Below the pieces are notes generated by a model. It did not search any database. It had not been told where the DNA came from and worked only from the letters and a program-made list of their open reading frames with translations. Shown one piece after another: positions 24,190-31,757 of a stretch of 64,000 bases of DNA; positions within the stretch are counted from its first letter, which is position 1; each line of letters starts with the position of its first letter. Location of the stretch: positions 2,294,001-2,358,000 of the forward strand of contig NZ_CP073104.1 of the NCBI RefSeq assembly GCF_018138145.1, written 5' to 3'. Source of the stretch: Pseudomonas sp. SCA2728.1_7. GTDB taxonomy: Bacteria; Pseudomonadota; Gammaproteobacteria; Pseudomonadales; Pseudomonadaceae. The translations under genes and the position numbers were made by a program.

Positions 24190-24244
24190 ACTTTTGCGAT
24201 TGATTGAAACAGAGAGGGAGGTGTACGCGACCACTGTAGGCCTT

Positions 24245-24322
24245 CGCCTGCTCGCGATAGCGGTGTGTCATCCAAAAAATTCGTCAACTGACACTCCGCT
24301 ATCGCGAGCAGGCTCACTCCTA
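24245..24322. repeat. Long REP-type inverted repeat
   Basis: GCCTGCTCGCGATAGCGG (24246-24263) is the reverse complement of CCGCTATCGCGAGCAGGC (24296-24313). TGTCA/TGACA continue the symmetry inward. The arms are REP-like, with an altered core (ATAGC). It lies upstream of flhA and before the first DUF6124 module. Confidence 0.8.
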
Positions 24323-24366
24323 CATTTGGTGTGCATTTCACTCTCACATTTGGAATGCAGTCTCTT

Positions 24367-24393
24367 GTGGGAGCGAGCCTGCTCGCGAAGAGG
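24367..24393. repeat. REP palindrome ahead of DUF6124 module 1
   Basis: GTGGGAGCGAGCCTGCTCGC followed by GAAGAGG. A REP in the same orientation stands about 30-60 bases ahead of the leader block in all three DUF6124 modules. Confidence 0.75.
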
Positions 24394-24420: not shown

Positions 24421-24747
24421 TTTAAACGAAGCTGTTTAAAAGACACCTGCAGACACTGTCTCAAGGCTACAAATCCTTGCGCCATTGCCTACAGCTACGC
24501 CAGAATCCGCCGGCTTGTGCGCCTTGGGGGCGGGTTCTATTGTGAATCGGTCGCTGACGAATCAGCGATCGGGTCTCGCAGCCCGTCGATCTCTGGACGC
24601 ACAACACTCGCTTTTTTATGGCGGCTGTACGTGGGAGACCTTCGGGTCTGCCGGTTCTAGAGTCCCGGTCTGCGACCCGCGTATAGCTGCCACCTTCATT
24701 CGTCTCGCAGCGAACGCTGGCAACTCCAATGACTCTAGGAGCTTCAG
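24421..24747 (+). promoter_or_regulatory. Structured leader of DUF6124 module 1
   Basis: First of three homologous leaders. Visible elements in order: TTTAAAC/GTTTAAA inverted repeat; hairpin CGGTCGCTGA-CGAA-TCAGCGATCG (24548-24571, one G-U); box 1 TCTCGCAG (24574-24581); stem strand GGCGGCTGTACG (24620-24631); UUCG-capped hairpin AGACC-TTCG-GGTCT (24636-24649); box 2 CTGCGA (24670-24675); stem strand CGTATAGCTGCC (24680-24691); box 3 TCTCGCAG as the loop of a TTCG/CGAA hairpin (24699-24714); CTCC/GGAG pairing over the ribosome site (24724-24741). Box 2 is complementary to both box 1 and box 3. No gene is supported inside it. Confidence 0.75.
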
Positions 24748-25107
24748 ATGATCAAACCAACACCCAACCCACCCGAAATCGACCTCGCCTCCCCCTACGA
24801 ATCCCTCGATTCAAAAAAGCTCAACGACGCCGCCGAACGCGCCCTCGATCACTACCTCTGCCCACCCGGCTCCACCCATCCGCCACGCAAAGCCCGCCGG
24901 ATGTACGCCGTTACTGCCGACTTCAAAAACGAGGAGCTGCTGGCCGATGCCAGCGAAACGCTCGCTTCAGCCAGAACCATCGCCCATGACTTCGCTCATC
25001 TCATACCCGCGTCACAGCGCAGGACGCTTTTAGGGATCGCGCAACTGATCATGCTCGGCGAGCTGGCGGTGAATCGGGTGATGGATAATCTGGAGTTGCC
25101 GCAGTAG
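24748..25107 (+). CDS. DUF6124 (DUF3077-like) family protein, copy 1
   Basis: 119 residues, function unknown; of a family seen mainly in Pseudomonas. The N-terminus is Pro-rich (MIKPTPNPPEIDLASPYESLDSKKL). The rest is predicted helical, with a conserved ALDHYLCPPG segment and a hydrophobic C-terminal helix (RRTLLGIAQLIMLGELAVNRVMDNL). No signal peptide. The ribosome site TAGGAG is well placed. Nearly identical to the copies at 26221 and 31253; differences include Ile11 for Thr and His/Ala changes in the PPRK segment. Confidence 0.85.
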   Translation: MIKPTPNPPEIDLASPYESLDSKKLNDAAERALDHYLCPPGSTHPPRKARRMYAVTADFKNEELLADASETLASARTIAHDFAHLIPASQRRTLLGIAQLIMLGELAVNRVMDNLELPQ

Positions 25108-25121
25108 CACGTCGCCCCGGT

Positions 25122-25233
25122 GATCATTCCCACGCTCCCGCGTGGGAATGCCTCAACGGACGCTCCGCGTTCGGCTTTTGAAGTGACGCAGAGCGTCCCG
25201 GACTGCATTCCTTTGCTGCGCGTGGGAACGATC
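25122..25233. repeat. 112-bp palindromic element, copy A
   Basis: Begins GATCATTCCCACGC and ends GCGTGGGAACGATC, so its ends are inverted repeats. Inside, TTCCCACGCTCCCGCGTGGGAA forms one hairpin and GACGCTCCGCGTT/GACGCAGAGCGTC another. A near-identical copy follows DUF6124 copy 2 (26592-26703) but not copy 3. It resembles the non-autonomous palindromic repeats common in this species group. Confidence 0.8.
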
Positions 25234-25242
25234 AAAAAGACA

Positions 25243-25286
25243 TAAAAAAACCGCTGCCCGATTGAGCCGGGACAGCGGTTTTTTCG
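25243..25286. terminator. Bidirectional intrinsic terminator
   Basis: AAAAAACCGCTGCCCG pairs with CCGGGACAGCGGTTTTTT around an ATTGAG loop. It lies between the convergent DUF6124 copy 1 (plus) and the cold-shock-like gene (minus) and has T-runs on both strands. Confidence 0.85.
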
Positions 25287-25320
25287 TTTCAGCCGTTTTG
25301 TGAGGAGTACAAACGGGGGA

Positions 25321-25653
25321 TCAATAGCGAAGGTTTGTCACTTCCCGCGAGCCCTCTTCCACCAGATCAAATTTGACCGCCCTGTCTTTCCCTTTTTCTA
25401 AAGGGATATTCATCTTGTACTTATGCTCATCAGGGACGGTGAAGAAGTAATATCCTTCGCCTTCTTTTTTCTCCCACCCCCCCTGCGTATAGATGGATAC
25501 TGAATTGGCCTCTAAGGAGAATTTCGACGAGCGAGGAGCCAAAGGTATTTCTAGAAATCCGTGATTCTCGGGGTTTGCAGGAACTGCGGGGTCGACAGGA
25601 TTAATAGTGCCCCGGCCTTTGTCTGCGTCATAGCTTACGAATACACCGTCCAT
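25321..25653 (-). CDS. Small protein with cold-shock-domain-like ends
   Basis: About 110 residues from the ATG at 25653, which has GAGGG 9 bases upstream; an in-frame ATG at 25689 has no ribosome site. The N-terminus MDGVFVSYDADKGRGTINP follows the cold-shock pattern (G-x-V-x-x-Y/F-x-x-x-KG-x-G-x-I-x-P), and the C-terminus RAVKFDLVEEGSREVTNLRY follows the end of that fold. The middle (about residues 25-90) is longer than in CspA and the aromatic RNA-binding residues are missing (KGRGTI for KGFGFI). Possibly an OB-fold protein without classic RNA binding. AT-richer than the core genes, and preceded by the shared 20-bp palindrome at 25740-25759. Confidence 0.7.
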   Translation of the reverse strand: MDGVFVSYDADKGRGTINPVDPAVPANPENHGFLEIPLAPRSSKFSLEANSVSIYTQGGWEKKEGEGYYFFTVPDEHKYKMNIPLEKGKDRAVKFDLVEEGSREVTNLRY

Positions 25654-25739
25654 TTTCTTTATCCCTCGTCGCTGTAGAAATGCAAGCACCCAATGTGCTG
25701 CATCGCTCAGCCATCAAACCGCAAGGGCACGCTTTCCAC

Positions 25740-25759
25740 ACCTGTAAAACCTGACAGGT
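25740..25759 (-). promoter_or_regulatory. Shared palindromic operator-like site A
   Basis: ACCTGTAAAACCTGACAGGT: the outer ACCTGT/ACAGGT arms are intact and the centre has diverged. It is 87 bases upstream of the cold-shock-like gene. On the gene's strand it is preceded by GGTTACCGTTTGTCT, nearly the same as GGTTACCGTCTGTCT ahead of site C. Confidence 0.65.
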
Positions 25760-25807
25760 ACGGTCAGCTTTTAGACAAACGGTAACCGTCAGCAATCAGA
25801 TTCCAAA

Positions 25808-25834
25808 TGTGGGAGCGAGCTTGCTCGCGAAGGG
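25808..25834. repeat. REP palindrome ahead of DUF6124 module 2
   Basis: GTGGGAGCGAGCTTGCTCGC followed by GAAGG. The roughly 25 bases between this REP and the leader block (CCAGTGAAG...GCAAATCGCC) are also conserved at module 3, so the duplicated unit starts at the REP. Confidence 0.75.
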
Positions 25835-25859
25835 ACCAGTGAAGACAGTGCAAATCGCC

Positions 25860-26220
25860 TTTTAAACTCAGGTGTTTAAAAGACACCTCCAGACACGCCT
25901 TCCAGGCTACAAATTCTTGCGCCTTTGCCTACAGCTACGCCAGAATCCGCCGGCTTGTGCGCTTTGGGGGCGGGTTCTATTGTGGTGCGGTCGCTGACGA
26001 ATCAGCGATCGGGTTTAGCGACTCGAATTCAAGTCAAAGGTGCATCAGCGTTCCAGGCTTCGTTGCGGATCTGTATTTTCGCGATTTCGTCATGGTGGCT
26101 GTATGCGGGAGACCCTCGGGTCTGCCGGGTGCCTTTGACCGGTTCGCTAACCTGCGTACAGCCGCCACCCCTCCTGTTTAGCGACAGGTTGTAGCGGCTC
26201 CACTTCAAAGGAGTCTCACC
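25860..26220 (+). promoter_or_regulatory. Structured leader of DUF6124 module 2
   Basis: Homologous to the leaders at 24421 and 30891, with a longer spacer after box 1. Elements: box 1 TTTAGCGA (26014-26021); stem strand GGTGGCTGTATGC (26094-26106) pairing with GCGTACAGCCGCC (26154-26166); hairpin AGACC-CTCG-GGTCT; box 2 TCGCTAA (26144-26150); box 3 TTTAGCGA as the loop of CCTG/CAGG (26173-26188); CTCC/GGAG over the ribosome site AAAGGAG. Compared with module 1, boxes 1 and 3 have both changed to TTTAGCGA and box 2 to its complement. Confidence 0.75.
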
Positions 26221-26580
26221 ATGATCAAACCAACACCCAACCCACCCGAAACCGACCTCGCCTCCCCCTACGAATCCCTCGATTCCAAAAAGCTCAACGA
26301 CGCCGCCGAACGCGCGCTCGATCACTACCTCTGCTCACCCGGCTCCACGCCACCGCCGCGTAAAACCCGCCGGATGTACGCCGTCACTGCGGACTTCAAA
26401 AATGAAGAACTGCTGGCCGATGCCAGCGAAACACTCGCCTCCGCCAGAACCATCGCCCATGACTTCGCTCATCTCATACCCGCGTCGCAACGCAGGACGC
26501 TGTTGGGGATCGCGCAATTGATCATGCTCGGCGAGCTGGCGGTGAATCGGGTGATGGATAATCTGGAGGTGCCGCAGTAG
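26221..26580 (+). CDS. DUF6124 (DUF3077-like) family protein, copy 2
   Basis: 119 residues, unknown function, nearly the same as copies 1 and 3 (for example LCSPGSTPPPRKTRR here against LCPPGSTHPPRKARR in copy 1). The ribosome site AAAGGAG is 7 bases upstream of the ATG and could be masked by a short hairpin with the preceding CTCC. A 112-bp palindromic element follows it. Confidence 0.85.
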   Translation: MIKPTPNPPETDLASPYESLDSKKLNDAAERALDHYLCSPGSTPPPRKTRRMYAVTADFKNEELLADASETLASARTIAHDFAHLIPASQRRTLLGIAQLIMLGELAVNRVMDNLEVPQ

Positions 26581-26591
26581 CGACACGCGAT

Positions 26592-26703
26592 GATCGTTCC
26601 CACGCTCCCGCGTGGGAATGCCTCAACGGACGCTCCGCGTTCGGCTTTTGAAGTGACGCAGAGCGTCCCGGGCTGCATTCCTTTGCTGCGCGTGGGAACG
26701 ATC
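26592..26703. repeat. 112-bp palindromic element, copy B
   Basis: Starts GATCGTTCCCACGC and ends GCGTGGGAACGATC. Nearly identical to 25122-25233 and in the same position relative to the DUF6124 stop codon, so gene plus element were probably duplicated together. Confidence 0.8.
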
Positions 26704-26772
26704 GATCTCTAAGGCTTTTTCAGCTTCGACTCGACCTCTCCCAAAATCACCATCCGTCGGATTTCGGTCCAC

Positions 26773-26792
26773 ACCTGTCAGATCTGACAGGT
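26773..26792 (+). promoter_or_regulatory. Shared palindromic operator-like site B (perfect 20-bp palindrome)
   Basis: ACCTGTCAGATCTGACAGGT is its own reverse complement over 20 bases. It is 60 bases upstream of the ATG of the 1259-residue Ig-like protein and is preceded by CACCATCCGTCGG, which recurs before site D. Confidence 0.75.
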
Positions 26793-26852
26793 GCGCAAAT
26801 CGCTATTTAGCCGTTCAATCACTCCGTCACCTTCCCGACCGGAGTCGTTGCC

Positions 26853-29800
26853 ATGTCCGCCCCCAACAAACCCCTGGCACTCAAGGAACTCGACATCCCC
26901 GGGCGGACCGGCCCGGTGTCGAACAATCCCATAATCTGGGGCATCAACATCGCCGCCGCGCTGGGCAACTTTCCGCTTCATGGCCTGCTGTGCCGGGCGG
27001 GGCCGTGGGGGAACATGGCGATTGGCGACACGCTGAGGATCTCTTGGGGCAGCTGGCTGAACGTCTGGGTAGAGACCGTCGACAAGACCGAGGTCAACAC
27101 GCAACTGCAGATGTTCGTGCCTTTCAAGCACATGGTCGATGGCCGGTTCGCGGTGTCCTATGTCGTCAAGCCGTTGGGCGGCACAGATCAACCGTCCGAC
27201 GTCATGCAGGTGCTGGTCAAGCTGACTCGCCCGGGCGGTGATTCCCCGCTGATCATGATCATTCCCCAAGCGATTCTTGACGGCGGCATCGACAAGGACA
27301 ACGTCGCCGATGGCGTGCCGATCACCATTGGCATGGCCGACGGCACACCGCCCTACTCCAACGCTGCGGCCGGTGATGTGTGTCGCGTGAGTTGGGGCGG
27401 GATCTATGTGTTCAGTGATCCGCTGACCCAGGAGCAGGCCGAAGGCAAAGCGCCGATCATCATCACCATCATCGAAGCGGTCATCCGCGAGGCCGGTGAT
27501 GCGGATTTTCCCGGCGTGGCCGTGGTGTTCGACGTGTTCGACAAGGTCTTCAACCGCTCTGAAGACTGGAGCGCCGAACAGCGTGTGGTGGTGGCTGTCG
27601 ATGCGACCCGGCTGGTCGCGCCATTGCTCAAGGAAACGCAGAACAACGAGCTGGACGTCGACAAACTGGCCGACGCCGATGGCACCGTGCAAATCATCGC
27701 CACGGATACGAGCAAGTTCAAAGTCGGAGACAAGGTATTCATCAGGATCAAGGGCACTCCCGTCGAGGGGCCGCCGATTGATTGGGAACCGTCAGCAGGC
27801 GTCGAGTTGAAAAGTGTGCCGAGCATTTTGGAAACCACGGCTCCCAACGCCGTGCTGCGTCAGTTGGCCAAGTCCCAGATCACTTTGTCTTACCGCCTGG
27901 AAAAAGCCGACGGCTCCGCCGATCTGAAATCCAAAAGCCAATTTATCCGCGCCATCGGCGAAGTCCAGCGGCTGGCCGCGCCGAAGGTGCTGGACGAGAA
28001 CTCCGGAGCACTGGACCCCGCACTGGACAAGATACGCCTGGAGATTCGATTCGATAAATCCTTTGCCGAAGGCCAGGCTCTCAAGATATTCATGCTCGGC
28101 ACCACGCCTGGCCTCGAACCCTACCTGCCTGACCTGGCTTTACGTCCCATCACCCACAACGAAATCGTCGCCGGACTACCGCTGGCATACAGCATCGATG
28201 GCAAACATCTGGCCACGGTCAACGGTGGTACGGTGGAGTTCTATTACCAGCAATGGCTCCCGGACTCGGTGCTCGCCACGCTGGATCTGTTCGAGGCCAC
28301 TCACGCCATTCGCGAGTCGATCCACACCGACATCCTGCGAGTCGGCGAACCGCGCCTGGAACTGCCGGAACCGGAAGTGGCCGGCGTGGTGAACGGTGTG
28401 CTGCCCGCCGACACCGCCGGCACCACCGCGACGGTGACCTACACGAAAACGGTCAAAAACGATGAAGCGTTCATGTTCTGGAAGGGTTCAAAGACCGGCG
28501 AGTATACCGACTCGATCAAGCTGAACGAATTTACCGCCGGTCAGAGAGTACCGTTCCCGATCCCGGCGGCGGTGATCAAGGGCAATGAAGGCGGAACGGT
28601 GGAGGCCCGGTATCACATCGTGCGCGCGGCGGGCGGGACGAGTTATTCGGATACGTTGACGTTCAGTGTCGGCGTGGCGTTGGATCTGAAAGAGCCGAAA
28701 ATCAAGGAAGCCCCCAACGACACCAGCCTCGACCCGCTGGATGCCCAGAGCACACTGACGGCGGAGATCAACTATGACGGCATGCTGGTCGGTGACAAGA
28801 TTATTGCCAAGTGTACCGGCGCACCCGGAACACCGCCTGCCGGCTCGCACACCACGGATCCATGGCCGGTCACTCTCGTCGGCCCGCAGGACATACCGCT
28901 GGCCGTCCCGGTGATCGCCTTCAACGTCGCCAAGTCAATCACGCTTGACTACTCCGTGACACGCGACAGTCAGGAACCAAAAAAGTCGCCGCCGCGTACG
29001 TTGGCGGTGTTGCAACTGCGTGTGGATCTTTCGCATTCGCCGAAGATCATTCAGGCGGCCGACGGTGGTGACGGGACTGAACTGGATGTTTCCACGCTCA
29101 CCGGACCGGCCACCCTTCGCGGCGGTTTCTGGCCGCACATTGCCAACGGCCAGCGCGTATGGATGAGTGTAAAAGGCATAAAAAAAGACGGTACCGAGTA
29201 CAAGCGCGTCGTCTGGACTGGCCCGAACAATGCTGTGAACGGAACCTGGATCTCGCAAAAATACCTCGACGCAACCGTGTCATTGGTGGATATGCAGTCG
29301 TTGAAGAACCTAAGCCAACTGCTGGTGACGTTCATGACCACTCTGGATCGCAGCACGGATGAAAGTCAGGCGCTGAGTTTTCCGGTGCGGACCTATACGG
29401 TCAAAAACCTCGTAGAGGTGCTGCCGACCATTACCTCAATCAAGGAGTCGCCCGGTGGGGAGGAAATCCCACACGGCAGCCCGACAGTAAAAACAGCCGT
29501 CACGCTGAGTGGAACGGCCACCCCGGACACAAAAATCGATCTGGCCAATAACGGCGTACTGATGCCGAATACTGAAATTGAAGTAGATCCAAAGGGAGAA
29601 TGGACTTTCACACTGACTGCTCTGATTGCCGGAACTACCTACAGCCTGCGCGCCAGACGCAAGGACGGCACGCTCTCCAATACCTGGAATATTGTCGTGG
29701 TGGCATCGGTAGTGCCGACGCTGGACAATGTGCTGGATGACAAGGGGGTGGAAGTGCCGGACGGAAAAACGACTGTCAGCAATACACTGAAACTCAAAGG

Positions 29801-30632
29801 CACGGCAAGTGATGGTCAGAAGGTCGAAATTTTTGATGGTAACGGTGCAAGCGCGGAATCCAAGGGCATTGCAACGGCCGATGATGTGAAAGGAACATGG
29901 GAGCGCACGATAACTGTTGCACTAGGAACACGTCGGTTATACGCAAAATCGCTTTATCACAGTGGCTCGATTTATTCGGGTGTGCGTAACTTGACCATAA
30001 TCCCTTCACTGCAAATTGATCCATCGCGAATGGAACTTGATGGAGTCCAGTTGTACCTTGCACCCGCTCCTTACACTCCCCCATTTGAACGCACGGCTTT
30101 CAGACATCCGAACACATCACAAACGCGCGTCCCCACTGGAGGTACCCCACCTTATGAATACACGACGTCAAATCTGCAAGTAGCTACCGTAGATCTCAAA
30201 ACCGGACTTGTGGTCTCGACCGGAAACGGAACCGCACAAATCACCGTTACCGACACCGCAGGTGCCAGCGTCAGTTTTCCTGTCAGATGCCAACGAGTGT
30301 ACGAAGTGGTAACCGGGCCGCCAAAAAGTTTCAATCAAGGAATTGAATGGTTAGGGACAATTGGCGCATTCCATTTCATTCACATGAATTGGCTTCCTGC
30401 AATCGGGACAAGCCTTAATTACGGCTTTCAACAGATTACCGGTCAACGACATTTGTATTGGTACTGGGGGGGGCCCGCAGAGAACGAATCAGCTACTCAG
30501 TCATTTCCAGGCCAAGCGACTGGAAGCCAGGCTTCGTACCCCACGACCAAAGGATTCAGCGATAATACTCCTATGACGCTATACACTACCCCACTAAGCC
30601 CACTAGGTTTCAGACCAAGAACTCCCAGCTAG
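26853..30632 (+). CDS. Large multi-domain Ig-like protein without signal peptide
   Basis: 1259 residues. The N-terminus (MSAPNKPLALKELDIPG) has no signal peptide or membrane segment. Residues about 20-850 are a series of beta-rich modules of roughly 110-150 residues (DKVFIRIKGTP, DEAFMFWKGS, DKIIAKCTGAPG, QRVWMSVKGI) of a type I do not recognise. Residues about 855-1050 hold two bacterial Ig-like domains (VTLSGTATPDTKIDL, LKLKGTASDGQKVEIF). Residues about 1060-1150 resemble a Big2 domain (ATVDLKTGLVVSTGNGTAQITV). The last 100 residues are rich in Trp/Tyr/Gly. The 5' part has host-like GC; the 3' quarter is visibly AT-richer, suggesting an exchanged tip. The ribosome site GGAG is 8 bases upstream. 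Function unknown, possibly a surface or secreted structural protein. Confidence 0.8.
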   Translation: MSAPNKPLALKELDIPGRTGPVSNNPIIWGINIAAALGNFPLHGLLCRAGPWGNMAIGDTLRISWGSWLNVWVETVDKTEVNTQLQMFVPFKHMVDGRFAVSYVVKPLGGTDQPSDVMQVLVKLTRPGGDSPLIMIIPQAILDGGIDKDNVADGVPITIGMADGTPPYSNAAAGDVCRVSWGGIYVFSDPLTQEQAEGKAPIIITIIEAVIREAGDADFPGVAVVFDVFDKVFNRSEDWSAEQRVVVAVDATRLVAPLLKETQNNELDVDKLADADGTVQIIATDTSKFKVGDKVFIRIKGTPVEGPPIDWEPSAGVELKSVPSILETTAPNAVLRQLAKSQITLSYRLEKADGSADLKSKSQFIRAIGEVQRLAAPKVLDENSGALDPALDKIRLEIRFDKSFAEGQALKIFMLGTTPGLEPYLPDLALRPITHNEIVAGLPLAYSIDGKHLATVNGGTVEFYYQQWLPDSVLATLDLFEATHAIRESIHTDILRVGEPRLELPEPEVAGVVNGVLPADTAGTTATVTYTKTVKNDEAFMFWKGSKTGEYTDSIKLNEFTAGQRVPFPIPAAVIKGNEGGTVEARYHIVRAAGGTSYSDTLTFSVGVALDLKEPKIKEAPNDTSLDPLDAQSTLTAEINYDGMLVGDKIIAKCTGAPGTPPAGSHTTDPWPVTLVGPQDIPLAVPVIAFNVAKSITLDYSVTRDSQEPKKSPPRTLAVLQLRVDLSHSPKIIQAADGGDGTELDVSTLTGPATLRGGFWPHIANGQRVWMSVKGIKKDGTEYKRVVWTGPNNAVNGTWISQKYLDATVSLVDMQSLKNLSQLLVTFMTTLDRSTDESQALSFPVRTYTVKNLVEVLPTITSIKESPGGEEIPHGSPTVKTAVTLSGTATPDTKIDLANNGVLMPNTEIEVDPKGEWTFTLTALIAGTTYSLRARRKDGTLSNTWNIVVVASVVPTLDNVLDDKGVEVPDGKTTVSNTLKLKGTASDGQKVEIFDGNGASAESKGIATADDVKGTWERTITVALGTRRLYAKSLYHSGSIYSGVRNLTIIPSLQIDPSRMELDGVQLYLAPAPYTPPFERTAFRHPNTSQTRVPTGGTPPYEYTTSNLQVATVDLKTGLVVSTGNGTAQITVTDTAGASVSFPVRCQRVYEVVTGPPKSFNQGIEWLGTIGAFHFIHMNWLPAIGTSLNYGFQQITGQRHLYWYWGGPAENESATQSFPGQATGSQASYPTTKGFSDNTPMTLYTTPLSPLGFRPRTPS

Positions 30633-30665
30633 CTGGTACTGGCATCGGTTATTTCGGACAGACTA

Positions 30666-30740
30666 GGCGTTATCAGGGACAGACCCCGGATCTACGCCCG
30701 ACTTTTCGACCTTTGAAGAAAAGGGGACAGATTTATTTAA
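30666..30740. other. Possible remnant repeats containing GGGACAG
   Basis: Two nearby GGGACAG motifs (CAGGGACAGACCCCGG and AAAAGGGGACAGATTTATTT). The second resembles a repeat seen around REP-associated transposase genes in pseudomonads. No transposase gene is present, so this would be a remnant at most. Confidence 0.35.
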
Positions 30741-30794
30741 CCGGTGAGTTAAACAGTGGGGGTTGATCGAAATTTTTTCGCTGACCGGGATGGC

Positions 30795-30864
30795 CCTTTC
30801 GCGAGCAGGCTCGCTCCCACAGGGAAATGCATTGTAAATGTGGGAGTGAGCTTGCTCACGAAGG
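30795..30864. repeat. REP palindrome pair ahead of DUF6124 module 3
   Basis: TTCGCGAGCAGGCTCGCTCC (from 30798) and the inverted GGAGTGAGCTTGCTCACG (from 30843), about 25 bases apart. The second unit shows paired substitutions (GAGTGAG/CTCAC), which keep the hairpin. The leader of module 3 begins about 27 bases on. Confidence 0.8.
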
Positions 30865-30890
30865 GGCCAGTGAAGTCTGCGCAAATCGCC

Positions 30891-31252
30891 TTTTAAACTC
30901 AGATGTTTAAAAGACACCTTCAGACACGCCTTTCAGGCTACAAATTCTTGCGCCATTGCCTACAGCTACGCCAGAATCCGCCGGCTTGTGCGCTTTGGGG
31001 GCGGGTTCTATTGTGGTCCGGTCGCTGACGAATCAGCGATCGGGTTTAGCGATCCGATACCCTACAGACGCTCAATCCCCAGTCTCAATTGCGGCTTTTT
31101 CTATCTGCACTTGGCGTCATGGTGGCTGTGCGTGGGAGACCTTCGGGTCTACCCGGGGTTTCTGTGACCCGGATCGCTAACCTGCGTACAGCCGCCACCT
31201 TTACTCGTTTAGCGATGAGCCGTGGCGGCTAAATCAACCACGGAGCCTCACC
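30891..31252 (+). promoter_or_regulatory. Structured leader of DUF6124 module 3
   Basis: The clearest of the three. Hairpin CGGTCGCTGA/TCAGCGATCG (31019-31042); box 1 TTTAGCGATCCG (31045-31056); stem strand GGTGGCTGTGCG (31121-31132) pairing with CGTACAGCCGCC (31185-31196); UUCG hairpin AGACC-TTCG-GGTCT (31137-31150); box 2 CGGATCGCTAA (31170-31180), an 11-base complement of box 1; box 3 TTTAGCGA in a CTCG/TGAG hairpin (31204-31219). CCGTGG/CCACGG encloses the region just before the ribosome site GGAG. Box 1-box 2 crosses the long stem, giving a pseudoknot. Confidence 0.75.
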
Positions 31253-31612
31253 ATGATCAAACCAACACCCAACCCACCCGAAACCGACCCCACCTCCCCC
31301 TACGAATCCCTCGATTCAAAAAAACTCCACGAAGCCGCCGACCGCGCCCTCGATCACTACCTCTGCCCACCCGGCTCCACGCCACCACCGCGCAAAACCC
31401 GCCGGATGTACGCCGTCACCGCGGACTTCAAAAACGAAGAACTGCTGGCGGATGCCAGCGAAACACTCGCCTGCGCCAGAACCATCGCCCATGACTTCGC
31501 TCATCTCATACCCGCGTCACAGCGACGGACGCTTTTAGGGATCGCGCAACTGATCATGCTCGGCGAGCTGGCGATGAATCGGGTGATGGATAATCTGGAG
31601 TTGCCGGGTTGA
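31253..31612 (+). CDS. DUF6124 (DUF3077-like) family protein, copy 3
   Basis: 119 residues. Differs from copies 1 and 2 at a few positions (DPTSPY for DLASPY, KKLHEAADRALD for KKLNDAAERALD, LACARTIAHD for LASARTIAHD). No signal peptide or catalytic motif is evident. It lacks the 112-bp palindromic element found after the other two copies and is followed instead by a REP pair. Confidence 0.85.
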   Translation: MIKPTPNPPETDPTSPYESLDSKKLHEAADRALDHYLCPPGSTPPPRKTRRMYAVTADFKNEELLADASETLACARTIAHDFAHLIPASQRRTLLGIAQLIMLGELAMNRVMDNLELPG

Positions 31613-31660
31613 CGCAGGCACTGGGGACACCTGCTGATTGATCCTGGTCAATTCTGACGC

Positions 31661-31727
31661 CTTCGCGAGCAGGCTCGCTCCCACCGTTGAGCGGATTTCA
31701 GAGTGGGAGCGAGCCTGCTCGCGAAGA
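31661..31727. repeat. REP palindrome pair (inverted)
   Basis: CTTCGCGAGCAGGCTCGCTC and its reverse complement GAGCGAGCCTGCTCGCGAAG, about 27 bases apart, after DUF6124 copy 3. Confidence 0.85.
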
Positions 31728-31757
31728 CTGGCTCACCAGCAACAAAAAGCTTGAAGC

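What the first reader, a model, noticed from the sequence alone, without database searches (positions are those of the whole stretch)
24574..31219. Three-element co-changing switch (box 1, box 2, box 3) with two mutually exclusive pseudoknots
In module 1, box 1 and box 3 both read TCTCGCAG and box 2 reads CTGCGA. In modules 2 and 3, box 1 and box 3 both read TTTAGCGA and box 2 reads TCGCTAA. All three places changed together, keeping complementarity. Box 2 lies between the two strands of a long stem (GGYGGCTGTxxG / CGTAYAGCYGCC); box 1 is upstream and box 3, displayed in a hairpin loop, is downstream. Pairing of box 2 with either crosses the stem, so two competing pseudoknots are possible. In module 3 box 1-box 2 extends to 11 bases. 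Stem differences between copies are all Watson-Crick or G-U, and one hairpin is capped by UUCG, both signs that the molecule acts as RNA.
Basis: seen in the sequence. Interest (0 to 1): 0.88.

Follow-up and report, generated by a model that had tools for sequence, protein, structure and literature searches.

The report
Phage-type silencing RNA multiplied across chromosome
The three-box switch is a known phage-type silencing RNA called C4, but in this Pseudomonas chromosome it occurs at least 45 times, and most copies are matched in sequence to the start of their own neighbouring small gene, which makes it a natural test bed for how antisense RNAs find their targets.

Summary
Boxes 1, 2 and 3 are a1, a' and a2 of the C4 antisense RNA system of phage P1: Rfam finds C4 (RF01695) and c4-a1b1 (RF03163) in all three modules above curated thresholds, and P1's annotated leader has the same order and pairings.

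The genome holds at least 45 such modules, before DUF6124, DUF3077, Bro-N or unnamed small genes. Own-target pairing far exceeds swapped pairing (z -15 to -17) and this replicates in 88 loci from 68 other genomes of the genus (z -26.5 and -18.9). All 45 P3 loops differ, though 14 of 990 loop pairs share 7 nt or more; with both pairings summed, 41 of 45 C4s pair best with their own gene. Mechanism, inferred from P1/P4: C4 is cut from the leader and blocks translation of its own gene. The effectors' role is unknown. Verdict: a known RNA class in an unusual, expanded, chromosomal, individually addressed form.

The parts
24499..24543 (+). Module 1 promoter-like element: 18-mer GCCAGAATCCGCCGGCTT (24499-24516), -35 TTGTGC 24515-24520, 17 nt, -10 TATTGT 24538-24543
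   Evidence: 18-mer: 21 exact copies in the genome, each 98-132 nt upstream of a C4; hexamers read by eye
24537..24589 (+).
   Evidence: RF03163 48.0 bits, cutoff 46.7
24591..24597 (+). Module 1 b1-like site CTCTGGA, pairs with the P3 loop (one G-U)
   Evidence: sequence; own b1 region ranks 1 of 44
24614..24697 (+).
   Evidence: RF01695 72.7 bits, cutoff 45
24703..24710 (+).
   Evidence: junction pairing -9.8 kcal/mol, rank 4 of 45
24731..24741 (+). Module 1 b2 GACTCTAG overlapping the SD AGGAG
   Evidence: duplex with own P3 loop -15.9 kcal/mol, rank 1 of 45
24748..25107 (+). DUF6124 gene, module 1, 119 aa
   Evidence: PF19619 69.4 bits
25939..25983 (+). Module 2 promoter-like element
   Evidence: (18-mer 25939-25956)
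25977..26029 (+). Module 2 c4-a1b1; a1 (box 1) 26014-26021
   Evidence: RF03163 50.6 bits
26033..26040 (+). Module 2 b1-like site GTCAAAGG
   Evidence: sequence; own b1 region ranks 2 of 44
26088..26172 (+). Module 2 C4; P3 loop (b') 26130-26138, junction (a', box 2) 26144-26150
   Evidence: RF01695 77.4 bits
26177..26184 (+). Module 2 a2 (box 3)
   Evidence: junction pairing -8.8 kcal/mol, rank 7 of 45
26205..26213 (+). Module 2 b2 TCAAAGG overlapping the SD GGAG
   Evidence: duplex -10.8 kcal/mol, rank 1 of 45
26221..26580 (+). DUF6124 gene, module 2, 119 aa
   Evidence: PF19619 69.3 bits
30970..31014 (+). Module 3 promoter-like element
   Evidence: (18-mer 30970-30987)
31008..31060 (+). Module 3 c4-a1b1; a1 (box 1) 31045-31052, complementarity to 31056
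   Evidence: RF03163 48.8 bits
31063..31068 (+). Module 3 b1-like site TACAGA
   Evidence: sequence; own b1 region ranks only 9 of 44
31115..31202 (+). Module 3 C4; P3 loop (b') 31158-31167, junction (a', box 2) 31174-31180
   Evidence: RF01695 64.8 bits
31208..31215 (+). Module 3 a2 (box 3)
   Evidence: junction pairing -9.9 kcal/mol, rank 1 of 45
31238..31245 (+). Module 3 b2 CCACGGAG including the SD
   Evidence: duplex -15.3 kcal/mol, rank 1 of 45
31253..31612 (+). DUF6124 gene, module 3, 119 aa
   Evidence: PF19619 66.6 bits

Best explanation
Each module is a chromosomal copy of the phage P1-type C4 antisense leader, attached to a small gene. Shown by sequence: a promoter-like element sits just upstream of a leader that carries, in order, a1, b1, the C4 RNA (P3 loop = b', junction = a'), a2 (usually in a hairpin), b2 at the Shine-Dalgarno region, and the start codon; a1, a' and a2 change together, and so do b1, b' and b2. 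Inferred from P1, P7 and P4: C4 is excised from the leader by RNase P, pairs by a' and b' with a2 and b2 of mRNA from its own locus, and stops ribosome binding, perhaps also causing early transcription termination; a1/b1 is a second site that competes for the same RNA. In this genome at least 45 modules each carry a different P3 loop, so each effector gene is probably silenced mainly by its own C4.
For: Rfam C4 and c4-a1b1 above cutoffs in all three modules. P1 leader: same order; a1 -13.3, b1 -9.9, a2 -10.8, b2 -17.6 kcal/mol to C4; a2 and b2 annotated there as sites for repression of icd ant translation. 45 C4s in the genome. Native versus permuted: b'-b2 z -17.5, a'-a2 z -15.3 (n = 45); a'-a1 z -16.3, b'-b1 z -15.7 (n = 44); controls z -0.4 and -0.7. 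DUF6124-only: z -14.8 and -12.1, n = 33. Replication in 88 of 89 loci: z -26.5 and -18.9, coding control -0.4. With both pairings summed, 41 of 45 C4s prefer their own target. SD-like core paired in 40 of 45. RNase P cutting of P1/P7 C4 and the b'/ribosome-site model: PMC5320573 (section 16).
Against: No expression, processing or repression data here. A reversed-target control gave z -4.2, so part of the energy is base composition. Taken singly, own target is best for 28 of 45 (P3 loop-SD), 18 of 45 (junction-box 3), 32 of 44 (junction-box 1) and 17 of 44 (P3 loop-b1 region), and for 31 and 34 of 88 in the other genomes. Only 35 of 45 targets are best served by their own C4, and 97 of 1980 non-cognate pairs lie within 3 kcal/mol of the cognate pair, so insulation is incomplete.
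Confidence: 0.85

Rival explanations
1. Cis-acting riboswitch-like leader: the two competing pseudoknots switch expression within one transcript in response to a ligand or to translation.
For: All elements lie on one strand of one leader; box 2 can pair with box 1 or box 3. In P4 the CI RNA pairs with seqA upstream and seqC downstream (described in PMC4825925, passage seen).
Against: C4 family hit, the P1 geometry, and pairing elements that differ between modules (45 different P3 loops), whereas a ligand pocket would be expected to be conserved. Only C4 and c4-a1b1 reach gathering score in the window.
Confidence: 0.08
2. Relics: decaying remains of phage immunity regions with no present function.
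For: Phage-type RNA; two copies precede Bro-N genes, and the one of these tested matches phage anti-repressor families; some copies have short ORFs, e.g. 24, 52 and 52 aa.
Against: The pairing elements stay complementary while the sequences change. 110 of 119 genomes of the genus hold C4. 32 of 36 DUF6124 genes have C4 within 400 nt upstream.
Confidence: 0.05
3. Toxin-antitoxin-like unit: the small protein is toxic and C4 acts as its RNA antitoxin.
For: Small ORFs under likely antisense RNA control in many copies; in P1 the C4-controlled Icd is annotated as inhibitor of cell division.
Against: No PADLOC match for the four effector proteins tested; the predicted DUF6124 model (pLDDT 71.6) has no PDB match with E <= 0.001. 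The question of toxicity was not tested directly.
Confidence: 0.2

Closest known systems
C4 antisense RNA of phages P1/P7 (Rfam RF01695, RF03163; P1 c4-icd-ant region)
   Same: RNA fold, order a1-b1-C4-a2-b2-ATG, which part of C4 pairs with which site, b2 at the SD
   Different: Chromosomal and multi-copy; downstream genes are DUF6124, DUF3077, Bro-N and unnamed small ORFs instead of icd/ant; a C1-type repressor was not looked for
P4 CI RNA (seqA/seqB/seqC)
   Same: One RNA pairs with a site on either side of it in the same transcript (described in PMC4825925; the name seqB is recalled)
   Different: P4 sequence was not compared here; P4 acts by transcription termination, not tested here
Acinetobacter baumannii Group 1 C4-like sRNAs (21 copies, PMC5320573)
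   Same: Many chromosomal C4-type RNAs with variable loops, apparently processed as in P1/P7 (section 16 read)
   Different: The parts read name no mRNA targets; here most copies have a matching target in their own downstream gene leader
IsrK of Gifsy-1 (RF01394)
   Same: Weak similarity to the a1b1 hairpins (E 3e-4 to 8e-3); described as a structural homologue of P4 SeqA
   Different: 27.3-32.6 bits, below the gathering score of 50

Membership tests
C4 antisense RNA (RF01695) | C4 fold and sequence above the curated score | tested here: met
   72.7, 77.4 and 64.8 bits against cutoff 45
C4 antisense RNA (RF01695) | upstream a1b1 element (RF03163) | tested here: met
   48.0, 50.6 and 48.8 bits against cutoff 46.7
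C4 antisense RNA (RF01695) | a' and b' complementary to a2 and b2, with b2 at the ribosome-binding site | tested here: met
   same geometry as P1
C4 antisense RNA (RF01695) | excision by RNase P | not testable with these tools
   needs RNA; reported for P1/P7 in PMC5320573, which cites Hartmann 1995
C4 antisense RNA (RF01695) | translational repression of the downstream gene | not testable with these tools
   annotated for P1; not shown here
P1-type c4-icd-ant immunity operon | icd and ant downstream of c4 | tested here: not met
   window genes are DUF6124; elsewhere in the genome Bro-N genes follow 2 of 45 C4s, one tested and Ant-like
IsrK (RF01394) | score above the gathering score of 50 | tested here: not met
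   27.3-32.6 bits
Metabolite riboswitch | match to a known riboswitch family | tested here: not met
   only C4 and c4-a1b1 reach gathering score in the window

The most novel reading that the evidence does not exclude
Pseudomonas has turned the P1-type immunity RNA into a genus-wide set of largely insulated gene silencers: dozens of small effector genes per genome, each under its own C4, with selection keeping the addresses different even between nearly identical effectors, so that each unit can be released alone, for example when a phage or a stress disturbs that C4.
Probability: 0.3. Interest if true: 0.78.

Novelty: new variant of a known kind. Interest (0 to 1): 0.56.

Why it matters
One chromosome offers at least 45 natural variants of one antisense RNA-target pair with 45 different P3 loops, so the rules of antisense specificity and cross-talk could be measured directly. 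It also gives the DUF6124 and DUF3077 families of unknown function a shared control logic, and ties a phage immunity RNA to host genes on a scale that, in the papers found here, is reported only for Acinetobacter (PMC5320573).

Tried and rejected
Metabolite riboswitch: only C4 and c4-a1b1 reach gathering score in the window. Phage or plasmid cargo: DUF6124 has no plasmid match, one phage record, near its edge, and 5 viral contigs, all at contig ends; four of those five carry a C4 beside it. Anti-phage defence family: no PADLOC match for the 5 proteins tested. Fold of DUF6124: AlphaFold2 model pLDDT 71.6, pTM 0.45, a helix plus a helical hairpin; no PDB match with E <= 0.001. A 46th module suspected at 2444310 from a one-mismatch promoter match: no C4 match up to E 0.1 in 901 bases. 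A pair count on an alignment (count of structure pairs) was not run, because P3 loops and SD regions do not align column by column; native-versus-permuted energies were used instead.

My first labels had a and b exchanged: in scripts and in notes 21, 39 and 55, "a'" is the P3 loop and "b'" the junction. P1 shows the reverse; the report uses the P1 names.

Rows dropped or chosen: start codons were picked by script (ATG 42-62 nt after C4 with the longest ORF, 40-66 nt). One search dropped 1 of 89 loci (L131, no ATG in range); 10 of the 88 kept have ORFs under 45 aa. The box 1 tests use 44 of 45 (one a1 not parsed). One search left out 2 of 77 loci as too short and merged 4 identical leaders into one. 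One search placed the first hairpin in 41 of 45 modules, and at least one of these placements is off by eye.
Full report
WHAT IS THERE. The boxes are at the stated places. Rfam finds the C4 antisense RNA and the c4-a1b1 element in each of the three modules above the curated scores. Each module ends in a DUF6124 gene (PF19619); the second and third proteins are 96% and 91% identical to the first.

NAMES FROM P1. Phage P1 (AF234172) annotates a1, b1, C4, a2, b2 and then icd, with a2 and b2 marked for repression of icd ant translation. Pairing P1's C4 with these sites shows that the junction after stem P3 pairs with a1 and a2, and the P3 loop with b1 and b2. For each of these three P3 loops its own SD region ranks first of 45.

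GENOME SCALE. The window lies in a 6.78 Mb single-contig genome with 45 C4 matches, all above cutoff; 150 of 1781 first-look candidates were scored, so 45 may be low. It has 36 DUF6124 genes; 32 of 36 have C4 within 400 nt upstream. In each of the 45 modules the start codon chosen by script, from a range of 42-62 nt, lies 45-56 nt after C4; three of these ORFs have only 24, 52 and 52 aa. By blastp linkage the 42 proteins of 70 aa or more form groups of 33 (DUF6124-type), 4 (unnamed), 3 (DUF3077) and 2 (Bro-N) (Pfam; one of the unnamed four was not scanned). A fourth DUF3077 ORF, at 3820457, needs a later start, 120 nt after C4. One Bro-N protein was compared with PHROGs and matches nine families described as anti-repressor.

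IS THE PAIRING MORE THAN CHANCE? Each C4 was paired with its own and with every other module's target (RNAduplex, 10,000 permutations). P3 loop against SD region: -12.86 own, -6.65 permuted, z -17.5, n = 45, own best in 28. Junction against box 3: -9.41, -5.11, z -15.3, n = 45, own best in 18. Junction against box 1: -10.54, -5.31, z -16.3, n = 44, own best in 32. P3 loop against the b1 region: -13.37, -7.98, z -15.7, n = 44, own best in 17. Controls on the P3 loop: reverse complement of the SD region z -0.4, coding stretch z -0.7, reversed SD region z -4.2. The last shows a composition effect. With DUF6124 modules only (33): z -14.8 and -12.1. In the window alone, own SD is best in 3 of 3, own box 3 in 1 of 3. 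An unbroken Watson-Crick run of 6 or more joins the junction to box 3 in 44 of 45 and to box 1 in 44 of 44 (swapped box 3: 8.5% of pairs); the exception, 4333993, pairs through a G-U (sequence).

REPLICATION. C4 occurs in 110 of 119 sampled genomes of the genus, this genome included, 109 above cutoff; only 33 candidates per genome were scored, so counts saturate there. The genus name Pseudomonas rests on the named relatives. I took 89 high-scoring loci from 69 other genomes (29 returned, 60 picked from the list); 88 from 68 genomes had an ATG in range. P3 loop-SD z -26.5 (own best in 31 of 88), junction-box 3 z -18.9 (34 of 88), coding control z -0.4, junction-upstream z -19.2, P3 loop-upstream z -9.8. 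These loci were the strongest C4s and include related ones. In the order sample 13 of 95 genomes had C4, this genome included; the 12 others had 1 to 6. All 75 distinct leaders from the named DUF6124 loci and the window give a C4-like match with a profile made from the 45 own C4s; the 77 named loci were the best 80 matches of 482, so close relatives.

ADDRESSES. All 45 P3 loops differ, with or without their stem edges, but 14 of 990 pairs share 7 nt or more and 4 share 9 or more. The junction has 25 different 7-mers. With both pairings summed, 41 of 45 C4s prefer their own target, and 35 of 45 targets are best served by their own C4; 97 of 1980 other pairs come within 3 kcal/mol. In 20 pairs of DUF6124 modules with coding identity of 85% or more, mean identity is 0.92 in the coding sequence, 0.81 in the C4 scaffold, 0.66 in the junction and 0.47 in the P3 loop. 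Loops thus differ far more than the genes they stand before. Selection for difference fits this, but recombination between modules would too; it was not tested on a tree.

PROMOTER. The 18-mer GCCAGAATCCGCCGGCTT occurs 21 times exactly in the genome and twice with one mismatch (backwards control 0); 22 of the 23 lie 98-132 nt upstream of a C4, the one exception being a one-mismatch copy. A second type, TTCAGGTTGTCCGTCGGA, occurs 7 times, all 124-127 nt upstream of a C4. The other modules have neither. Spacing of -35, -10 and the first hairpin was read by eye. No promoter was tested.

MECHANISM. Shown: anatomy, complementarity, its maintenance, and partial specificity, all in silico. Inferred: excision of C4, repression of translation, the role of a1/b1 as a competing site. 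RNase P cutting and the ribosome-site model for P1/P7, and 21 C4-like RNAs in A. baumannii, are from PMC5320573 (abstract, passages and section 16 seen). The P4 scheme is from PMC4825925 (passages). The 2010 paper that lists the C4 and c4-a1b1 motifs (PMC2864571) was seen only in passages. PMC12197685 and PMC8201110 were seen in passages. What the effectors do remains open.

LITERATURE. Searches for C4 antisense RNA with DUF3077, DUF6124, PF19619, PF11275 or Pseudomonas listed no paper that links C4 to these families by the terms used; one search listed 20 of 30. The one paper naming DUF3077 (PMC9630843, passage) concerns a mutation in an evolved P. putida. Most subscription journals are not in that library, so other reports may exist.

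One search was added; it recounted the proteins (42), the genomes behind, the promoter distances and the loop overlaps.

Noticed in passing
window 26853-30632 (+): ORF of 1259 aa between modules 2 and 3 with only weak domain matches (HL_N-beta below cutoff; weak PHROG tail and Ig-domain hits).
   Followed up: partly
window 25321-25689 (-): 122-aa ORF between modules 1 and 2 with no Pfam or NCBIfam match at E 0.001.
   Followed up: partly
window 24210-24390, 30790-30870, 31660-31730: Inverted repeats of the type GCGAGCAGGCTCGCTCCCAC around the modules, like Pseudomonas REP elements (name recalled, not tested).
   Followed up: no
G000:C1:2318499 and 20 other exact copies: An 18-base element whose exact copies all lie just upstream of C4 modules suggests a shared regulator for about half of the set.
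   Followed up: partly
L041: A DUF6124 gene without C4 at gathering score lies near a PrrF RNA match.
   Followed up: no
G000:C1:1231925-1236316: Three neighbouring modules whose genes are 95-97% identical, while their P3 loops differ strongly and one C4 scaffold is only 63-64% identical to the others, as if leaders had been exchanged.
   Followed up: partly
L084-L172 (several): In other genomes C4 precedes further small ORF types, for example a 52-aa ORF beginning MHALNPSKIRAAAHRAMALAALHANSSL.
   Followed up: no
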